Shown here one piece after another: positions 818 through 7,885 of a stretch of DNA of 22,468 bases. Numbering within the stretch: the stretch's first letter is position 1; each line of letters begins with the position of its first letter. The notes beneath the pieces were generated by a model. The model saw nothing but the letters and a program-made list of their open reading frames with translations. It made no database searches and had not been told where the DNA came from. Position numbers and translations under genes: made by a program. Source of the DNA: Gemmatimonadota bacterium (lineage in GTDB: Bacteria > Latescibacterota > UBA2968 > UBA8231); NCBI GenBank assembly GCA_028875335.1, contig JAPPEF010000307.1, positions 1 to 22,468 on the forward strand, read 5' to 3'.

Positions 818-1702
818 TCAGGACATTCTGCACTTCTGCTTGGCCGCCCATACGGTGTTGTAGAGCAATAGCGCGATTGTCATCGGTCCGACTCCGTTGG
901 GCACGGGCGTGATCGCGCGGGCTTTTGGGCGCACCTGTTTGTAGTCCACGTCGCCGACGAGTCGCCAGCCGCGTTCGCGCGAAGGGTCGTCAATTTGGTT
1001 GGTGCCCACGTCGATTACCACCGCCCCTTCTTTGACCATATCCGCCGTGATCCCCCGAGGGAATCCAGCCGCCACCACTAGGATATCCGCTTGGCGCGTG
1101 AAGTGCCCGAGGTCGCGGGTGCCGGTATGGCACAGGGTCACCGTGGCATTGGCTCCGGCCGCCTTGTGCCCCAGCAAGATGGCTACGGGCCGTCCCACGA
1201 GCGTGCTGCGGCCGACTACGACCACGTGCCGGCCTTCTACCTCGATCCCGCTGCGGCTGAGAATCTGCAAGACCCCGTGCGGCGTACAGGGCCAAAAGCA
1301 CTCCTCCTGCCGCACGAGGCGGCCCAAATTGACCGGGTGCAGGCCATCGACATCCTTGTTTGGGTCAATGGCGTTGAGGACCTGCTGCTCGTCTTGCCCC
1401 GGCAGCGGTAGCTGTATTAAGATGCCGTGGATCGCGGCGGCGGCGTTGAGCCGCTCGACAGTGGCTAGCACGTCCTCGGTCGTAGCGTTGGCGGGCAGAT
1501 CTATTTGCTCGGAGTGAATGCCGAGGGCTTCGCAGGCTCGGCCCTTGGCGCGCACGTAGGACTGCGAGGCTGGATTGTCCCCTACTAATACAACCGCCAA
1601 GCCCGGCACCAGACCGTACTCCTGCTTCAGGCGCGCGATGTCCACCAGCAGTTCTTCTTGCACTTGGGCCGCAATCGTCCGGCCATCGAGTCGCTCGCCC
1701 AT
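818..1702 (-). CDS. folD: Bifunctional methylenetetrahydrofolate dehydrogenase / cyclohydrolase FolD
   Basis: 294-residue protein, the usual FolD length. It interconverts 5,10-methylene-THF, methenyl-THF and 10-formyl-THF with NADP in the cytoplasm, supplying one-carbon units for purines and formyl-methionine. Visible signatures are the catalytic Tyr/Lys in SYVRAK (Tyr49, Lys53), QLPLPGQ, KDVDGLHP (residues 116-123), the Rossmann segment GRSTLVGRP (164-172) and the C-terminal signature PVPNGVGPMT. The open frame continues about 105 residues further upstream, but that part is antisense-like composition inside serS. The ATG at 1702 is chosen because the family N-terminus starts there and because it overlaps the serS stop by one base (TGATG), a typical translational-coupling arrangement. 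serS and folD are therefore probably co-transcribed. Confidence 0.96.
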   Translation of the reverse strand: MGERLDGRTIAAQVQEELLVDIARLKQEYGLVPGLAVVLVGDNPASQSYVRAKGRACEALGIHSEQIDLPANATTEDVLATVERLNAAAAIHGILIQLPLPGQDEQQVLNAIDPNKDVDGLHPVNLGRLVRQEECFWPCTPHGVLQILSRSGIEVEGRHVVVVGRSTLVGRPVAILLGHKAAGANATVTLCHTGTRDLGHFTRQADILVVAAGFPRGITADMVKEGAVVIDVGTNQIDDPSRERGWRLVGDVDYKQVRPKARAITPVPNGVGPMTIALLLYNTVWAAKQKCRMS

Positions 1703-3063
1703 CACGCGCCTTTCGGTTGCAGGACGCTCTTCTGCACGACTCGTTGCAGAGCTTCGGGAACCTGTACTGCGCCGTCGGGTTGTTGATAATTGTCCAAAAT
1801 GGCGATCAACAGCCGGCCCATTGCGCAACCCGTGTCGTTGACTAGGTGGCAAAACCCTCGCCCAGCCGCGCCCTTGTAGCGGATGTTCAAGCGCCGGGCC
1901 TGATAGTCGGTGGCGTTGGTGTCGGTCATTACCTCCATGAACTCTCCCGTCCCGGACATCCACACTTCCACGTCCCGCTGCCGATGGCTGGCCAGATAGC
2001 CCGCGTCGCCGTGGCACTTATCGACGACCCGGTAGGGCAGGGCTAACTCTTGCAAAAGCCATTCGTTGATCTGGCCGAATTCTTCGTACAGGGCTTCAGA
2101 CTGATCGGGCAGGCACACGGCGTTCATTTCGATTTTGTCGAATTGGTGCATGCGCTTGATACCCTTCACGTCTTGGCCCCACGACCCGGCTTCCGAGCGA
2201 AAGCAGGCCGTATAGGCGAAGAGCTTGACCGGCAGTTCGGCCGAGTCCAAGGTCTGGTCCATGAAGTAGCTGAAATTGGCCGGCTCGGAGGATCCGACTA
2301 GAAAAAGTTCGGCCCCTTCTTCTACGTTATCGGTCTTGATGGCATAGACTTGGTCGCGTCCTTCGGGAAAGTGCGAGGTGCCGTACAGCGAGCGCTCCCG
2401 CACTAGGAGCGGCGGCACTAACATCTCGTACCCGCGCGCTAAAAGCTCGTCGATGAGGAGCTGGCTCAGGGCGTATTGCATCCGCGCGACATCGCCGCGC
2501 AAATAGGCAAAGCGCGAGCCGGAAACTTGGCCGCCCTGCAAGGTGTTGATGCCGCCTAATTTGACGCCGAGCTCGGCGTGGTGGAGAGGCTCAAAGGAGT
2601 CGTCTTGGGTGTGCAGAGGACGCTTCGGCATGTACTCGGCGCTGGTGTTACCACGGCCCAACTTATCCGCCGCTAGGTAGCCTTGCCCCGGAATCCAGGC
2701 ATTCTCCTCGACATTGTCTTCCTCGCCAGCACCGGTAGGCATGTCGGGATGCGGCCAGTTGGGAAACCAATCCATGATTTCCTGCCACTCGGCGACGACG
2801 GTTCCCAACTCGTGCTCCAGCACCCGCCCGCGTTCGCGCAACTCCCGCCCCTTTTCCCGCGCTGCATCCGGGTCGTTGCGACCGAGTTGCGCTAGTTGCT
2901 TTTTCTCGCTGTTGAGTGCGTCGATGTTCCGTTGCAGCTTTTGCCGCGCCGCGTCGAGGGCTAACCAGCGATCCACATTAGCTTTGGCCGGATCAACTTT
3001 CCGCACCCGTATCGCCTCGCGCATGGCGTCGGGATCGGTGCGCACGGCCTTTGGGTCAATCAT
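1702..3063 (-). CDS. serS: Seryl-tRNA synthetase (divergent)
   Basis: 453-residue class II aminoacyl-tRNA synthetase that charges tRNA-Ser (and tRNA-Sec where present) with serine. Residues about 28-100 are charged and helical, fitting the tRNA-binding antiparallel coiled coil. The catalytic core shows motif 2 (FRSEAG, 288-293, then MHQFDKIEM) and motif 3 (GCAMGRLLIAILDNYQQPDG, 412-431). Several positions differ from common bacterial SerRS: the serine-site segment reads GSSEPANFSYF instead of the usual T-x-E-V-P-x-T-N, and the segment usually reading EISSCSN is EVMTDTNATDYQARR. The glutamates and the motif 2 arginine are kept, so activity is likely. It starts at the ATG at 3063 and ends on the folD start codon. 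It may be the only SerRS or a diverged second copy; the window cannot tell. Confidence 0.93.
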   Translation of the reverse strand: MIDPKAVRTDPDAMREAIRVRKVDPAKANVDRWLALDAARQKLQRNIDALNSEKKQLAQLGRNDPDAAREKGRELRERGRVLEHELGTVVAEWQEIMDWFPNWPHPDMPTGAGEEDNVEENAWIPGQGYLAADKLGRGNTSAEYMPKRPLHTQDDSFEPLHHAELGVKLGGINTLQGGQVSGSRFAYLRGDVARMQYALSQLLIDELLARGYEMLVPPLLVRERSLYGTSHFPEGRDQVYAIKTDNVEEGAELFLVGSSEPANFSYFMDQTLDSAELPVKLFAYTACFRSEAGSWGQDVKGIKRMHQFDKIEMNAVCLPDQSEALYEEFGQINEWLLQELALPYRVVDKCHGDAGYLASHRQRDVEVWMSGTGEFMEVMTDTNATDYQARRLNIRYKGAAGRGFCHLVNDTGCAMGRLLIAILDNYQQPDGAVQVPEALQRVVQKSVLQPKGA

Positions 3064-3403
3064 AATACTCGCTCTCAGTTTTGGGTCAAAAATGGATTAA
3101 AAATAAGAACGCCGCTGGCGCGAATCGTGGCAATATCGCAGAAGCCTTAGCTTTTCAGAGTGATCTTTTGCAGCCACTCGTCCCGCCCACCGTAGGCGGC
3201 AAACACGGCTTCGAGCAAGAGCCGCAGAAAGGGCTACTAGAAAACAAATATTTTATAATGATTGAGACTCGAAAACAGCTTATGGACCACTATGATGCCC
3301 CAAGTAGTGAACTGAAGGCCGATGATCCAGCGAAAGCGTTGATCGAGTCGGCGGTGCTATGTAGGAGTGTGCCGAGATTTCGGTTTGAGCAAAGGATAGT
3401 TTG
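3064..3403. other. 340-bp intergenic stretch between serS and the island genes
   Basis: No gene is supported here. It holds the serS upstream region, the apparent old 3' end of lysR (3147-3226, including the 65-bp repeat copy at 3162-3226), and about 180 bp of lower-GC DNA behind the HEPN-like gene. An open frame on the plus strand runs through both the lysR remnant and the unique DNA, so it is not a coherent coding sequence. Confidence 0.6.
3162..3226. repeat. 65-bp direct repeat, left copy (displaced lysR 3' end)
   Basis: Matches 4272-4336 at 64 of 65 positions in the same orientation; the only difference is A at 3189 against G at 4299. Read on the minus strand in the lysR frame it encodes the same C-terminal residues (…DEWLQKI), then continues into unique sequence as TLKS and a TAA stop at 3147-3149. 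It therefore looks like an authentic alternative lysR terminus rather than random homology. Confidence 0.93.
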
Positions 3404-3884
3404 TTACTTCAGCTTGTGATCAACTTCTTCCAAGAAGATTTTTGAGACCTTGAAAATCTTGTTCGTATCGTCGAACATCTTCCCCTTGGTTCGAGAGCGC
3501 CTATTTCTATTGGTTGGAGAGAAATCTATGTCCATTTCGTGGACAATCTGATTACGTGCTGTGAATATCCGAGCTAGGTCGTTTGGGTCTTTTGTAATTG
3601 AATTGGACTGGATATCAAAAAACGAACCTACCCTTAGCATCCTTTATCAGTTGCTTTACTAGGGCGTCCAGGCCAGCACAAGCAAATGTGAGCATGGCTC
3701 TGAGAAGGTCTTGTTCTTTGTCGGTGGATACTCCTCTCGCTTTGCGCGTCGTCCGCGTAGTATTAAAAATTTCAAGAAAGGAACTTGAGGTGTCGTGAGC
3801 ATTGCGTAGGAGAATATAGGCATTCCAACAACACTGTTGACAATCCGGCTCAGAGGGATAGTGATCGAAGCGCGATGACATCAA
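3404..3884 (-). pseudogene. HEPN-like protein gene, interrupted by a +1 frameshift in a homopolymer
   Basis: Two overlapping frames (3884-3615, 89 codons; 3640-3404, 78 codons) join into one protein of about 159 residues if one base is removed from the run of six A/T pairs at 3617-3622. The junction then reads KGRFVFDIQSNS instead of stopping at TGA. The joined protein has a helical segment (KEQDLLRAMLTFACAGLDAL, about 57-74) and, in the second half, RNQIVHE with Arg110 and His115. This matches the R-x4-6-H signature of HEPN domains, many of which are RNases in toxin-antitoxin and antiviral systems. The start overlaps the stop of the upstream gene (ATGA). GC content is visibly lower than in flanking genes. 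The break may be a sequencing error, a real inactivation or a phase-variable tract. The exact family is not recognised with certainty. Confidence 0.6.
3617..3622. other. A6/T6 homopolymer at the frameshift site
   Basis: Six consecutive A on the plus strand. With five, the HEPN-like reading frame is continuous; with six it ends at a TGA immediately downstream. This is the simplest single change that repairs the gene. Confidence 0.7.
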
Positions 3885-4198
3885 ACAGCCTCTAGTTCTT
3901 CAATGTCCTCAGCAAATGGCGGCAACGGTGAGTACTCTGCGTACCCTGGATACCCTGGATACTCTGGATACTCTGGATACCCTGGATACCCTGGATACCC
4001 TCTATTGGGCCGATCACTAAACCGATACAGTCGATTGTCTTGCGTTATTGTGCCAAGATACTCGCCGTTGGGGTCGAAGACATCTCCGTCCTTCCAAGGT
4101 GTCCAGCCAATCCAGTTGGCATTGGTGTCAAATACATACTTATCTCGCTTAAAGGCGATCCACTGGCCAGAAGAGCTAAATAGGTATTTGGTCATCAC
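3881..4198 (-). CDS. 4-fold beta-flower-type protein with C-terminal YPG/YPE repeat
   Basis: 105 residues with no signal peptide or membrane segment. The N-terminal half (about 1-65) is made of four similar short units, each an aromatic-rich beta hairpin: LFSSSGQWIAF, VFDTNANWIGW, VFDPNGEYLGT and the DNRLYRF unit. This pattern of four F-D/S-x-N-G-x-W/Y repeats is what I recall from proteins annotated as '4-fold beta flower'. Residues about 67-88 are a GYPGYPGYPEYPEYPGYPGY tract, followed by an acidic tail (FAEDIEELEAV). The start is the ATG at 4198, with an AGGA ribosome-binding site upstream; a second in-frame ATG follows at once. It overlaps the HEPN-like gene by ATGA, so the two are probably translated together. 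Function is unknown; pairing with a HEPN-like partner suggests a conflict or toxin-antitoxin role, which is inference. Confidence 0.72.
   Translation of the reverse strand: MMTKYLFSSSGQWIAFKRDKYVFDTNANWIGWTPWKDGDVFDPNGEYLGTITQDNRLYRFSDRPNRGYPGYPGYPEYPEYPGYPGYAEYSPLPPFAEDIEELEAV
3932..4003. repeat. Tandem 9-bp repeat, about eight units
   Basis: Seven consecutive 9-bp units of the form RTACYCTGG start at 3941, with a degenerate eighth unit at 3932-3940. In the minus-strand gene each unit encodes Tyr-Pro-Gly or Tyr-Pro-Glu. Unit number could vary by slippage. It is too short, and has no spacers, to be a CRISPR array. Confidence 0.9.
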
Positions 4199-4259
4199 TA
4201 GTCGTCCTGCCTAAAGAAGGTGAAGAGCGAATTAGACTATTAATATAGTTGAAAGACCA

Positions 4260-5180
4260 CTACTTGGCAGCGATCTTTTGCAGCCACTCGTCCCGCCCGC
4301 CGTAGGCGGCAAACACGGCTTCGAGCAAGAGCCGCACGGCTTGGCCAAAGTAGCGGCCACGCCGCCAGGCCACGCCGATTTCGCGCTCAAAGGCCACGCC
4401 GCGCACTTCTACTGTTTTGAGCGCGCCGCTGGCTAACGACTCGCGGATGGTCAGCCGCGGCAAAAACGAGATGCCCACCCCGGCCTCCACCAACTTGCGC
4501 ATGGCCTCTGGGCTGCGCAGTTCCATCACTGCGCCCGGCGCTAGGCCGGCTTCGGCGAACTTCTCGTCAATCACCTTGCGCGAGATCGAGTCGGCGTGAA
4601 AGAGGATCAGCGGCTCTTCTACCACCTCGGCGAGGGCGACGAACTCGCACCGGGTGAAGCGATGCGCTGGCCCGACGACCAAGGGCATGTCGTCGCGATA
4701 AATCGGCACGACGTCGATTTTGGGATGGGTATAGGGCAGGTGGATCAGCGCGAATTCAGCGCGCTGCATTAGCAGGTCGTCAATGAGATAGCGCGAGGGG
4801 GCCACTTGGGTCTTGAGTGCGACGCCCGGATAGCGGCGCATGTACTCTTTGAGAATTTCCGGCAGGAGGTAGATGACGGCCGCGTCCACCGCGCCGAACT
4901 GAAAGCCTCCTCCCGGTTCTAGGTCGCTCCGCTGCAGCCGCTCGCTCGCCTCCTCCAACAAGTCCTCGACTTGGACGGCATAGCTCAGCAACAGGCGGCC
5001 CTCGGTAGTAAGGGCTACGTGCCGATTATCGCGGTTGAAGAGCTGGACTCCCATGCTCTTTTCCAACTCCAGAACCGCACTGGAAACCGTCGGTTGGGTT
5101 ACGTTCATCTGGCGCGCCGCTTGGGTAAAGCTGCCCGTGCGCGCCACGGCGAGGAAGTAGCGCAGGTGTTGCAGGTTCAT
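4260..5180 (-). CDS. LysR-type transcriptional regulator
   Basis: 306 residues, typical for the family. Residues 1-60 form the winged helix-turn-helix (MNLQHLRYFLAVARTGSFTQ, then AARQMNVTQPTVSSAVLELE), and about 90-300 form the periplasmic-binding-like effector domain. LysR regulators bind DNA as tetramers and respond to a small metabolite. The gene follows a PhyH-family oxygenase by 10 bp on the same strand and is probably co-transcribed with the two oxygenases it may control; no classic divergently transcribed target is adjacent. No strong Shine-Dalgarno is seen before the ATG at 5180. The last 65 bp of usable coding sequence are duplicated 1.1 kb downstream. The present C-terminus is QKIAAK, whereas the displaced copy would end QKITLKS, suggesting that DNA insertion replaced the tail without breaking the gene. 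Confidence 0.95.
   Translation of the reverse strand: MNLQHLRYFLAVARTGSFTQAARQMNVTQPTVSSAVLELEKSMGVQLFNRDNRHVALTTEGRLLLSYAVQVEDLLEEASERLQRSDLEPGGGFQFGAVDAAVIYLLPEILKEYMRRYPGVALKTQVAPSRYLIDDLLMQRAEFALIHLPYTHPKIDVVPIYRDDMPLVVGPAHRFTRCEFVALAEVVEEPLILFHADSISRKVIDEKFAEAGLAPGAVMELRSPEAMRKLVEAGVGISFLPRLTIRESLASGALKTVEVRGVAFEREIGVAWRRGRYFGQAVRLLLEAVFAAYGGRDEWLQKIAAK
4272..4336. repeat. 65-bp direct repeat, right copy (inside lysR 3' end)
   Basis: Partner of 3162-3226 with one mismatch in 65. It encodes the C-terminal residues of the intact LysR protein on the minus strand. The two copies are exactly 1,110 bp apart and bracket the low-GC two-gene island. Confidence 0.93.
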
Positions 5181-6823: not shown

Positions 6824-6969
6824 GATGTGTTTCCCTTTGCTGGTATTGTTGCCTATCATCCCTCTATTTGAATGCGCTGGCGGTTGGTACGCAAAGCAAG
6901 AAGTTGCTCCTTGCCGGACGATGGGGCAAGCCGCCGACCGGGCCGCACCCAAATGGAGAATCTGTACTT
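6824..6969. promoter_or_regulatory. Divergent intergenic region between oxygenase unit and methyltransferase
   Basis: 146 bp separating two divergent starts. It must hold the promoter of the PhyH-PhyH-LysR unit and that of the methyltransferase. It would be the natural place for a LysR site, but I could not identify a convincing T-N11-A box or consensus promoter by eye. Confidence 0.4.
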
Positions 6970-7764
6970 GTGACTGACGCGAATTACGACAATTCCTGGT
7001 GGCCGCTGATATACGACCAGTGGAACGAGCGGGGCGACAGGCAGCAGACGCACGAGCGCGAGTTCCAATTCTATAGCAAGCAGCTCGCCGGAGAGACGGG
7101 TCCGGTCCTCGAAGCAGCTTGCGGCACTGGTTCGATTCTGCTCCGCCTTTTGCGCCAGGGCGTTGACATCAGGGGTTTCGATTGCGCCGCAGGGATGCTG
7201 GCCGTTTTGCGGCGCAAGGCAGCGGATTTGGGGCTGGGCGATATCGACCGCCGCGTCTGCTGTCAGGACATGGTTGACTTCTGCTGCGACCAGTCCTTTG
7301 CGGCCATCCTGATTCCGGCCAGCTCGTTCATGCTCTTGCCCACACAGGCAGCCCAAATCGCCTGTCTCGAACGCATCCGCGCCCATCTGGTGCCTGGTGG
7401 GCGGCTACTGATGAATTTCTACATCCCGTCGCTTGCCGACGATCTGCTTGCTCACGTCAGTCCGTCTCCGTCGCTGGAGGAATTCGGCGAATTTCCCCAC
7501 CCCGAAACAGGCCGTCAAATCAGCGTCCGGTTCAAAAAGACCGTCGATCTGGGCGAGCAGACTGAGCACTACCAGTGGTTTTTTGCCTACGACGGAGAAA
7601 CAGCGGCCGTGCCCATGACGGCCCGCTGGATATACAAAGAAGAATTTCAGCTATTGCTGCGCTTGGCAGGATTTAGCCGCTGGCAGCTTTTTGGCACCCA
7701 CGACGGCCAGCCGTACACAGGTTCAAAAGAGATCGGGACGACGTACTGGGTCGTCGATCGCTGA
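6970..7764 (+). CDS. Class I SAM-dependent methyltransferase
   Basis: 264 residues from the GTG at 6970. Motif I is VLEAACGTGSILLRLL (46-61), followed by the acidic SAM-ribose position in GFDCAAGML, a motif IV region (AAILIPASSFMLL) and LVPGGRLLMNFYIPS. This is the standard Rossmann-type methyltransferase core, with a C-terminal beta segment (EHYQWFFAYDGET) as in small-molecule methyltransferases. The acceptor is unknown. An ATG at 6868 would add 34 residues but has no Shine-Dalgarno and sits close to the divergent oxygenase start. The GTG has GGAG 11 nt upstream and gives an N-terminus (YDNSWWPLIYDQWNERG) ending where family homology plausibly begins. It is transcribed away from the PhyH unit, so a shared control region is possible. 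Confidence 0.87.
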   Translation: MTDANYDNSWWPLIYDQWNERGDRQQTHEREFQFYSKQLAGETGPVLEAACGTGSILLRLLRQGVDIRGFDCAAGMLAVLRRKAADLGLGDIDRRVCCQDMVDFCCDQSFAAILIPASSFMLLPTQAAQIACLERIRAHLVPGGRLLMNFYIPSLADDLLAHVSPSPSLEEFGEFPHPETGRQISVRFKKTVDLGEQTEHYQWFFAYDGETAAVPMTARWIYKEEFQLLLRLAGFSRWQLFGTHDGQPYTGSKEIGTTYWVVDR

Positions 7765-7885
7765 GCGAATCGAAGCGATAAATCCTTCTGAAACGGCTGC
7801 TGGTGCGCCGCCAAGGCTGCTTGCCTCTCTGCCCGCAATTGCAGAAATTATGTCCGCGTATTTCAAGGAGAATTGAGGTCCTATT

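What the first reader, a model, noticed from the sequence alone, without database searches (positions are those of the whole stretch)
3147..4336. A two-gene low-GC island inserted at the 3' end of lysR, leaving a 65-bp direct repeat and a displaced alternative lysR terminus
Seen: 3162-3226 and 4272-4336 match at 64/65 in direct orientation, exactly 1,110 bp apart. In the lysR frame the intact gene ends QKIAAK-stop, while the left copy continues as QKITLKS and a TAA stop, also a clean terminus. Between the copies lies visibly lower-GC DNA with two overlapping genes unrelated to either side. Known: integrative elements often enter the 3' end of a gene and restore its reading frame with their own copy of the att sequence. 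Inference: this island entered the lysR tail this way, or by repeat-mediated recombination. No integrase is present, so it would be a minimal or non-autonomous cassette.
Basis: partly seen in the sequence, partly recalled or inferred. Interest (0 to 1): 0.8.

Follow-up and report, generated by a model that had tools for sequence, protein, structure and literature searches.

The report
Toxin-like gene pair joined by recombination
A small two-gene cassette, possibly a toxin and its antidote, sits beside a regulator gene in one sponge-associated bacterium probably because DNA of a relative was joined in by ordinary recombination at one end and a sloppy join at the other, leaving a copied gene tail and no dedicated integration enzyme.

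Summary
The repeat is real: 64/65, or 66/68 over 3159-3226 and 4269-4336. The predicted empty site exists: in 5 of 11 genus genomes lysR ends LKS or PKS directly before serS. But the two relatives that carry the island (G011, G004) have no left repeat copy, and lysR ends AAK or TGK there. The window reads as a chimera of two allelic spacers: A-type (serS side, with its own lysR tail) joined at a 6-bp match, GCCGCA (3221-3226), to a B-type spacer remnant, the island and a B-type lysR tail. One homologous end plus one illegitimate end explains the 65-bp duplication better than att-site integration; the homologous crossover could not be placed. The island is Bflower (PF21784) followed by a HEPN gene; 28 of 39 HEPN loci found in named public genomes have Bflower directly upstream. 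In the window the HEPN gene is broken: relatives have 200 bp more, and the part with the catalytic motif lies in another frame. A toxin-antitoxin or abortive-infection role is inferred, not shown.

The parts
1702..3063 (-). serS, seryl-tRNA synthetase, left flank
   Evidence: Pfam PF00587 and PF02403
3064..3158 (.). A-type serS-lysR spacer, 95/95 identical to the spacer of the empty site in G001
3159..3226 (-). left repeat copy: displaced A-type lysR tail; in the lysR frame it runs on to QKITLKS-stop just beyond the repeat, as lysR of G001 does
3221..3226 (.). 6-bp microhomology GCCGCA shared by the A-type lysR tail and the spacer of G012: proposed illegitimate junction
   Evidence: sequences
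3227..3251 (.). remnant of the serS-side spacer seen in G011 (23/25) and G012 (22/25); G012 lacks the island
3227..4268 (.). B-type segment (the island), 45.6% GC
3404..3881 (-). HEPN (RiboL-PSP type) pseudogene; relative to G011 200 bp are missing at 3639/3640 (GCA at the junction). The part with the R-x4-H motif (3404-3640) is in another frame, with an ATG of its own
3881..4198 (-). Bflower gene, 105 aa, intact, with GYP-repeat tail
3933..4001 (+). 9-bp tandem repeat that encodes the GYP tail
4269..4336 (-). right repeat copy: 3' end of the intact lysR, which ends IAAK as in G011
4260..5180 (-). lysR, LysR-family regulator, 306 aa

Best explanation
The genus (Candidatus Latescibacterota, by record titles of matching contigs) has at least two versions of the serS-lysR spacer. 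A-type is short and empty, with lysR ending LKS/PKS. B-type holds a Bflower-HEPN pair (G011, G004) and lysR ends AAK/TGK. The window is a chimera: a B-type fragment recombined with an A-type chromosome by homology within or upstream of the lysR 3' end, and its other end was joined without long homology at GCCGCA inside the A-type lysR tail. The A-type tail was kept and displaced, which made the 65-bp direct repeat. This is the outcome called homology-facilitated illegitimate recombination; no integrase is needed. The chimeric anatomy is shown; the homologous crossover, the direction of transfer, RecA dependence and the route of DNA entry are inferred. The cassette itself is probably a toxin-antitoxin-like unit (HEPN RNase as toxin, Bflower as partner); here the HEPN gene has since been broken. 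That function is inferred from domain, operon overlap and patchy spread.
For: Empty site in G001, G005, G006, G009, G010. Occupied sites without a left copy in G011 and G004; the island-lysR junction of the window aligns with that of G011 throughout and less well with G004. Left flank 3064-3158 is 95/95 identical to A-type G001. 3227-3251 matches the spacers of G011 (23/25) and G012 (22/25); a 26-mer of that spacer (up to 3 mismatches) occurs in 2 of 25 family genomes, only at this locus. Six shared bases with G012 at the join; by hand calculation the chance of 6 or more at a random join is about 0.0013. HEPN at this locus only in the phylum (2 of 64). ComEC in 9 of 11 genus genomes, DprA in 11 of 11, Ku in 0 of 11. 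Function: Bflower directly upstream on the same strand in 28 of 39 HEPN loci; nearest in-frame start codon within -4 to +37 nt of the Bflower stop in 26 of those 28; R-x4-H invariant in 31 homologues that I chose of 161; HEPN broken with Bflower whole in the window and in L049 (first copy), L070, L075, L078, L084, the reverse in none of 30 copies.
Against: The homologous crossover cannot be placed: A/B-informative sites are mixed in lysR (4 A-like, 3 B-like) and phyH (3 and 5), against 10 and 2 (plus 1 other) in serS, and many branches of the gene trees have low support. The direction could be the reverse (A-type left arm into a B-type cell). The exact donor is not held: G011 has GGCGCG where G012 has GCCGCA, G012 lacks the island, and occupied G004 has no stretch like 3227-3251 (best 10 of 26 mismatches). 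The pattern search allowed 3 mismatches and the window itself has 4, so equally diverged remnants elsewhere would have been missed. The window's own assembly is not held, so the junction was not confirmed by reads or a second strain. Function: both genes are broken in L086; 11 of 39 HEPN loci show no Bflower (one of them, L082, begins near a contig end) and some Bflower genes have no HEPN neighbour. Decay of 7 HEPN against 1 Bflower has a chance of about 0.2 from gene length alone. The R-x4-H part in the window is an ORF of its own with an ATG, so a fragment could still be made.
Confidence: 0.76

Rival explanations
1. Site-specific integration: a minimal or non-autonomous integrative element entered the lysR 3' end, its att copy restored the reading frame, and the 65-bp repeats are attL and attR.
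For: Entry at a gene's 3' end with a restored stop, a direct repeat and an empty site in 5 of 11 relatives.
Against: Island in G011 and G004 without a left repeat copy; not found elsewhere in 64 genomes of the phylum; no Pfam recombinase in the five island ORFs or fragments scanned (of 11 ORFs of 40 codons or more that overlap it, one being lysR itself); the left border carries spacer DNA.
Confidence: 0.06
2. The repeat-flanked state is ancestral; empty sites arose by recombination between the repeats, and G011/G004 lost the left copy.
For: Deletion between the copies would give an empty site with the LKS terminus; Bflower and HEPN show pairwise dN/dS of 0.12-0.26, so the pair is not brand new.
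Against: The two window copies differ at 2 of 68 sites while the window's left copy and G001's tail differ at 4 of 68, which suggests a young duplication but on few sites; needs loss of the left copy in both G011 and G004, whose spacers next to serS are of the other type.
Confidence: 0.09
3. Assembly or amplification chimera of two strains that live together (A-type and B-type).
For: Metagenome-derived relatives (record titles); both alleles exist; own assembly not held.
Against: The left join shares 6 bases with the only comparable spacer (G012), far below an assembler's usual word length (recalled); the right junction also exists in G011.
Confidence: 0.09
4. The cassette is not a toxin-antitoxin unit but another accessory operon, for example an RNA-processing HEPN protein with a structural Bflower partner. 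(This is about the cargo and can hold together with the best explanation of the join.)
For: No PADLOC or NCBIfam model hits the pair (one weak TIR hit of the window's Bflower at E 0.074); no paper found; no structure could be predicted; the decay pattern is within what gene length gives.
Against: HEPN family with invariant R-x4-H, tight operon, patchy spread over about 11 phylum-level groups.
Confidence: 0.38

Closest known systems
Homology-facilitated illegitimate recombination (HFIR); model for displaced T6SS immunity genes in Vibrio cholerae (PMC5361080, passages read; PMC3240628, search listing with the start of its abstract only)
   Same: One end by homology, the other by illegitimate joining; a native gene part is kept and displaced next to the new cassette.
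   Different: Here a natural case that duplicates the 3' end of a regulator gene in an uncultured phylum, with 6 bp at the join; the cargo is a HEPN pair, not an effector-immunity pair.
Integrative elements that enter gene 3' ends (ICE, IME, genomic islands; recalled)
   Same: 3'-end insertion, restored reading frame, direct repeat.
   Different: No integrase found, no repeat around the same cassette in the two relatives that carry it, no second site found.
HEPN toxin modules, e.g. HEPN/MNT (PMC7641770, PMC11586414: search listings only), and the Ribo L-PSP-HEPN family of PMC3710099 (passages read)
   Same: HEPN domain with R-x4-H, two-gene operon, patchy spread.
   Different: Partner is a Bflower protein with a GYP-repeat tail, not a nucleotidyltransferase.
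PF21784 Bflower (4-fold beta flower protein)
   Same: Window protein scores above the Pfam cut-off.
   Different: The description shown gives no function; no paper on an operon with HEPN turned up.

Membership tests
Homology-facilitated illegitimate recombination | One end of the segment joined through extended homology | tested here: inconclusive
   Right junction is the allelic island-lysR junction of G011, with lysR 92.9% identical, but the crossover point cannot be placed
Homology-facilitated illegitimate recombination | Other end joined with little or no homology | tested here: met
   6-bp match GCCGCA between A-type lysR tail and G012 spacer
Homology-facilitated illegitimate recombination | RecA dependence and uptake of linear DNA | not testable with these tools
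   Only ComEC (9 of 11) and DprA (11 of 11) seen in the genus
Integrative element (att-site type) | Integrase or other recombinase gene in the element | tested here: not met
   Pfam scan of five island ORFs or fragments shows Bflower only; the rest is a broken HEPN gene
Integrative element (att-site type) | att repeats flank the element in each host | tested here: not met
   G011 and G004 have one copy only
Integrative element (att-site type) | Empty site in relatives and restored 3' end of the target gene | tested here: met
   5 of 11 genus genomes empty; lysR ends IAAK-stop
PF21784 Bflower | Score above the Pfam cut-off | tested here: met
   34.2 bits against 25
PF18735 HEPN_RiboL-PSP | Score above the Pfam cut-off | tested here: inconclusive
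   P0002 29.2 bits against 28.4; P0012 24.0 and P0021 27.5 and the G004 protein 24.2 are below; window fragments no hit
HEPN RNase | R-x4-6-H catalytic motif | tested here: met
   R176 N177 H181 invariant in 31 homologues chosen of 161; in the window the motif is encoded but in another frame than the first part
Type II-like toxin-antitoxin module | Two adjacent co-directional genes with overlap or short spacing | tested here: met
   26 of 28 linked loci within -4 to +37 nt, by nearest in-frame start codon
Type II-like toxin-antitoxin module | Toxicity of one product, neutralised by the other | not testable with these tools
   Needs expression in a laboratory strain

The most novel reading that the evidence does not exclude
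Bflower-HEPN is an undescribed, widespread toxin-antitoxin or abortive-infection module in which a beta-flower protein with a Gly-Tyr-Pro repeat tail restrains a HEPN RNase, and it spreads between sponge symbionts as an allele of one chromosomal site through integrase-free recombination.
Probability: 0.37. Interest if true: 0.6.

Novelty: new member of a known kind. Interest (0 to 1): 0.42.

Why it matters
If right, it is a natural footprint, resolved to a few bases, of how a small toxin-like cassette can move between related chromosomes without an integrase, and a warning that a direct repeat plus a restored gene end does not prove site-specific integration. It also points at a two-gene unit seen in about 11 phylum-level groups (my grouping of record titles) for which no described function turned up in the searches made here.

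Tried and rejected
Site-specific integration was tested against occupied relatives, other sites in the phylum and gene content, and set aside. A programmed +1 frameshift at the T-run in the HEPN gene was considered, because the local sequence looked like a slippery stop; rejected once whole relatives showed that 200 bp are missing. A mobile palindrome at the left border was tested by a pattern search; the 26-mer occurs only at this locus in G011 and G012, with at most 3 mismatches (the window's own copy has 4). Mapping the homologous crossover in lysR by A/B-informative sites and gene trees gave no clear breakpoint. PADLOC and NCBIfam gave no model for the pair. A sequence profile against solved structures gave only weak hits, best Csm6 at E 0.32 over the catalytic region. 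HEPN relatives in viral contigs: none by that search, though one viral contig found through Bflower carries the pair (L099); plasmids: one distant match. A scan of genes around the module for defence neighbours was prepared (118 ORFs) but not run. tRNA and Rfam searches of the window found nothing. For that I lowered the best explanation from 0.78 to 0.76 and the novel case from 0.40 to 0.37, and raised the rivals of ancestral repeats (0.08 to 0.09), assembly chimera (0.08 to 0.09) and other operon (0.35 to 0.38).
Full report
Observation. The direct repeat is as described: 64/65 between 3162-3226 and 4272-4336, 66/68 when extended to 3159-3226 and 4269-4336. Of 29 duplicated 20-mers in the window, 26 belong to it and 3 to the 9-bp tandem repeat in the Bflower gene. 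GC of 3227-4268 is 45.6%, the rest 60.3%. lysR ends QKIAAK; the left copy read in the lysR frame ends QKITLKS-stop.

Empty sites. The window's own assembly is not held; the nearest genome, G001, shares 32% of sampled 31-mers. In G001, lysR ends QKITLKS and is followed after a spacer by serS, with one copy of the repeat; 95 bp of that spacer are identical to the window's. Of 11 genus genomes in the family search, five have this empty arrangement (G001, G005, G006, G009, G010). Their lysR ends ITLKS, IALKS or IAPKS (four translated; G006 read by eye). Two carry the island (G004, G011). G012 has no lysR match at the site and an 88-codon ORF instead. G003 and G008 have a 202-codon ORF between serS and lysR, a pyridoxamine-phosphate oxidase by Pfam for G008. 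For G007 serS lies on a 3,273-base contig without a lysR match.

Occupied sites. In G011 and G004 the island lies between serS and lysR, but the left repeat copy is missing and the spacer next to serS is of another type. lysR there ends IAAK and ITGK, and the window's intact lysR ends IAAK. The island pieces match G011 at 85.8-86.4% and G004 at 77.3-85.6%, against 92.6% and 90.5% for serS.

Junction. Left of 3226 the window is A-type. From 3227 it reads GAAAGGGCTACTAGAAAACAAATAT, which matches the serS-side spacer of G011 (23/25) and of G012 (22/25). G012 lacks the island, so I read this stretch as spacer, not cassette. G004, although occupied, has nothing like it (best 10 mismatches of 26). 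A 26-mer of it with up to three mismatches occurs in 2 of 25 family genomes, once each, at this locus; the window's own copy has four mismatches, so that search would miss remnants as diverged as this one. In G012 the spacer reads GGGCCGCAGAAAGGG, in the A-type tail AGAGCCGCACGGC, in the window AGAGCCGCAGAAAGGG: six shared bases at the join. The chance of six or more shared bases at a random join is about 0.0013 (hand calculation, equal base frequencies). G011 reads GGCGCG there, so the true donor would be G012-like in this respect.

Mechanism. The anatomy follows if a B-type fragment recombined by homology at or upstream of the lysR 3' end and was joined illegitimately at GCCGCA inside the A-type lysR tail. 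The displaced A-type tail is the left copy. Shown: the two spacer types, the chimera, the short match. Inferred: the homologous crossover, direction, the route of entry, RecA. Informative A/B sites were 10 A-like, 2 B-like and 1 other in serS, 4 and 3 in lysR, 3 and 5 in phyH, so the crossover could not be placed and the reverse direction (A-type arm into a B-type cell) stays open. ComEC was found in 9 of 11 genus genomes (not in G001 and G006, 87% and 75% complete), DprA in 11 of 11, Ku in none of 11; this permits transformation and speaks against classical end joining, no more.

Known parallels. PMC5361080 (passages read) proposes homology-facilitated illegitimate recombination for T6SS effector-immunity modules that displace but keep an older immunity gene, and calls the process quite rare; PMC3240628 (search listing with the start of its abstract) describes it as homologous at one end and illegitimate at the other. 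The window looks like a case of that kind.

Cargo. Gene 1 (3881-4198, minus) is a Bflower protein (PF21784, 34.2 bits against 25) with a GYP-repeat tail and a conserved end. Gene 2 overlaps it by a base (TGATG) and is the start of a HEPN protein; full-length relatives that I printed have 222-229 aa. P0002 scores 29.2 against 28.4 for PF18735; P0012, P0021 and the G004 protein (24.2) fall below. R176, N177 and H181 are invariant in 31 homologues chosen of 161. PMC3710099 (passages read) lists Ribo L-PSP-HEPN as a family with the motif conserved and predicts RNase activity for HEPN domains with it. In the window 200 bp present in G011 are missing at 3639/3640 (the same gap against G004), and the last part is in another frame. 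That part is a 78-codon ORF with its own ATG and holds the motif, so a fragment could be made; a whole HEPN protein cannot be read from one frame. Pairwise dN/dS over the kept codons is 0.26 and 0.13 for Bflower and 0.22 and 0.26 for HEPN (window against G011 and G004).

Distribution. A scan of named public genomes with the HEPN alignment gave 39 loci; 28 have Bflower directly upstream on the same strand, 11 do not (one of the 11, L082, starts near a contig end). In 26 of the 28 the nearest in-frame start codon lies within -4 to +37 nt of the Bflower stop; L084 was not measured and L086 gave -23. Within the phylum the HEPN gene is in 2 of 64 genomes, Bflower in 6 of 64, 5 over the cut-off. Of 30 module copies (28 loci, a second copy in L049, and the window), HEPN is broken in 7 and Bflower in 1, which is also one with broken HEPN (L086); L050 is cut by a contig end (the unbroken state of the others rests on single-stretch profile matches). 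HEPN is about twice as long, and 7 or more of 8 breaks in it has a chance of about 0.2 by length alone, so this is a hint at most.

In print: searches for RiboL-PSP with HEPN, beta flower with antitoxin, 4-fold beta flower, and beta flower with HEPN returned no paper; HEPN with RiboL gave 9, none on this pair by title. Most subscription papers are not held.

Verdict. The att-type reading is not supported; integrase-free recombination with one illegitimate end is favoured. The cassette is a possible, uncharacterised toxin-antitoxin-like pair with a broken HEPN gene in this strain.

Noticed in passing
L005 3835-5753 (G001) and L036 4423-6301 (G004): A 1.9-kb insert at the other (5') end of lysR in two relatives encodes a DarT domain protein and a macro-domain protein in G001; the two inserts are 86.8% identical, and GGTTCATG (one change in G001) recurs at both ends. 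The window lacks it, so both ends of lysR vary.
   Followed up: partly
window 6868-7764: A methyltransferase ORF lies in a stretch (about 6850-7830) where G001, G006, G010, G011 and G012 show no match over most of it, while G009 matches throughout and G004 from about 6892 on.
   Followed up: no
L077, L079, L080, L083: HEPN relatives without Bflower share another recurrent upstream ORF (motif like WSYDKDGDFTHT), which suggests partner exchange.
   Followed up: no
L099 2995-4142: The Bflower-HEPN pair occurs on a contig of the viral collection, with overlapping genes.
   Followed up: partly
L049 4049-6669: Two tandem Bflower-HEPN units in a Thiosymbion record, the first with a broken HEPN.
   Followed up: partly
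window 3933-4001: 9-bp tandem repeat inside the Bflower gene; G004 carries two more units in the alignment.
   Followed up: partly
L041 2515-3126 (G012): lysR has no match and an 88-codon ORF rich in RIDETN repeats stands in its place.
   Followed up: partly
window 3404-3640: The motif-bearing 3' part of the broken HEPN gene is an ORF with its own ATG at the deletion junction; whether it is made is unknown.
   Followed up: no
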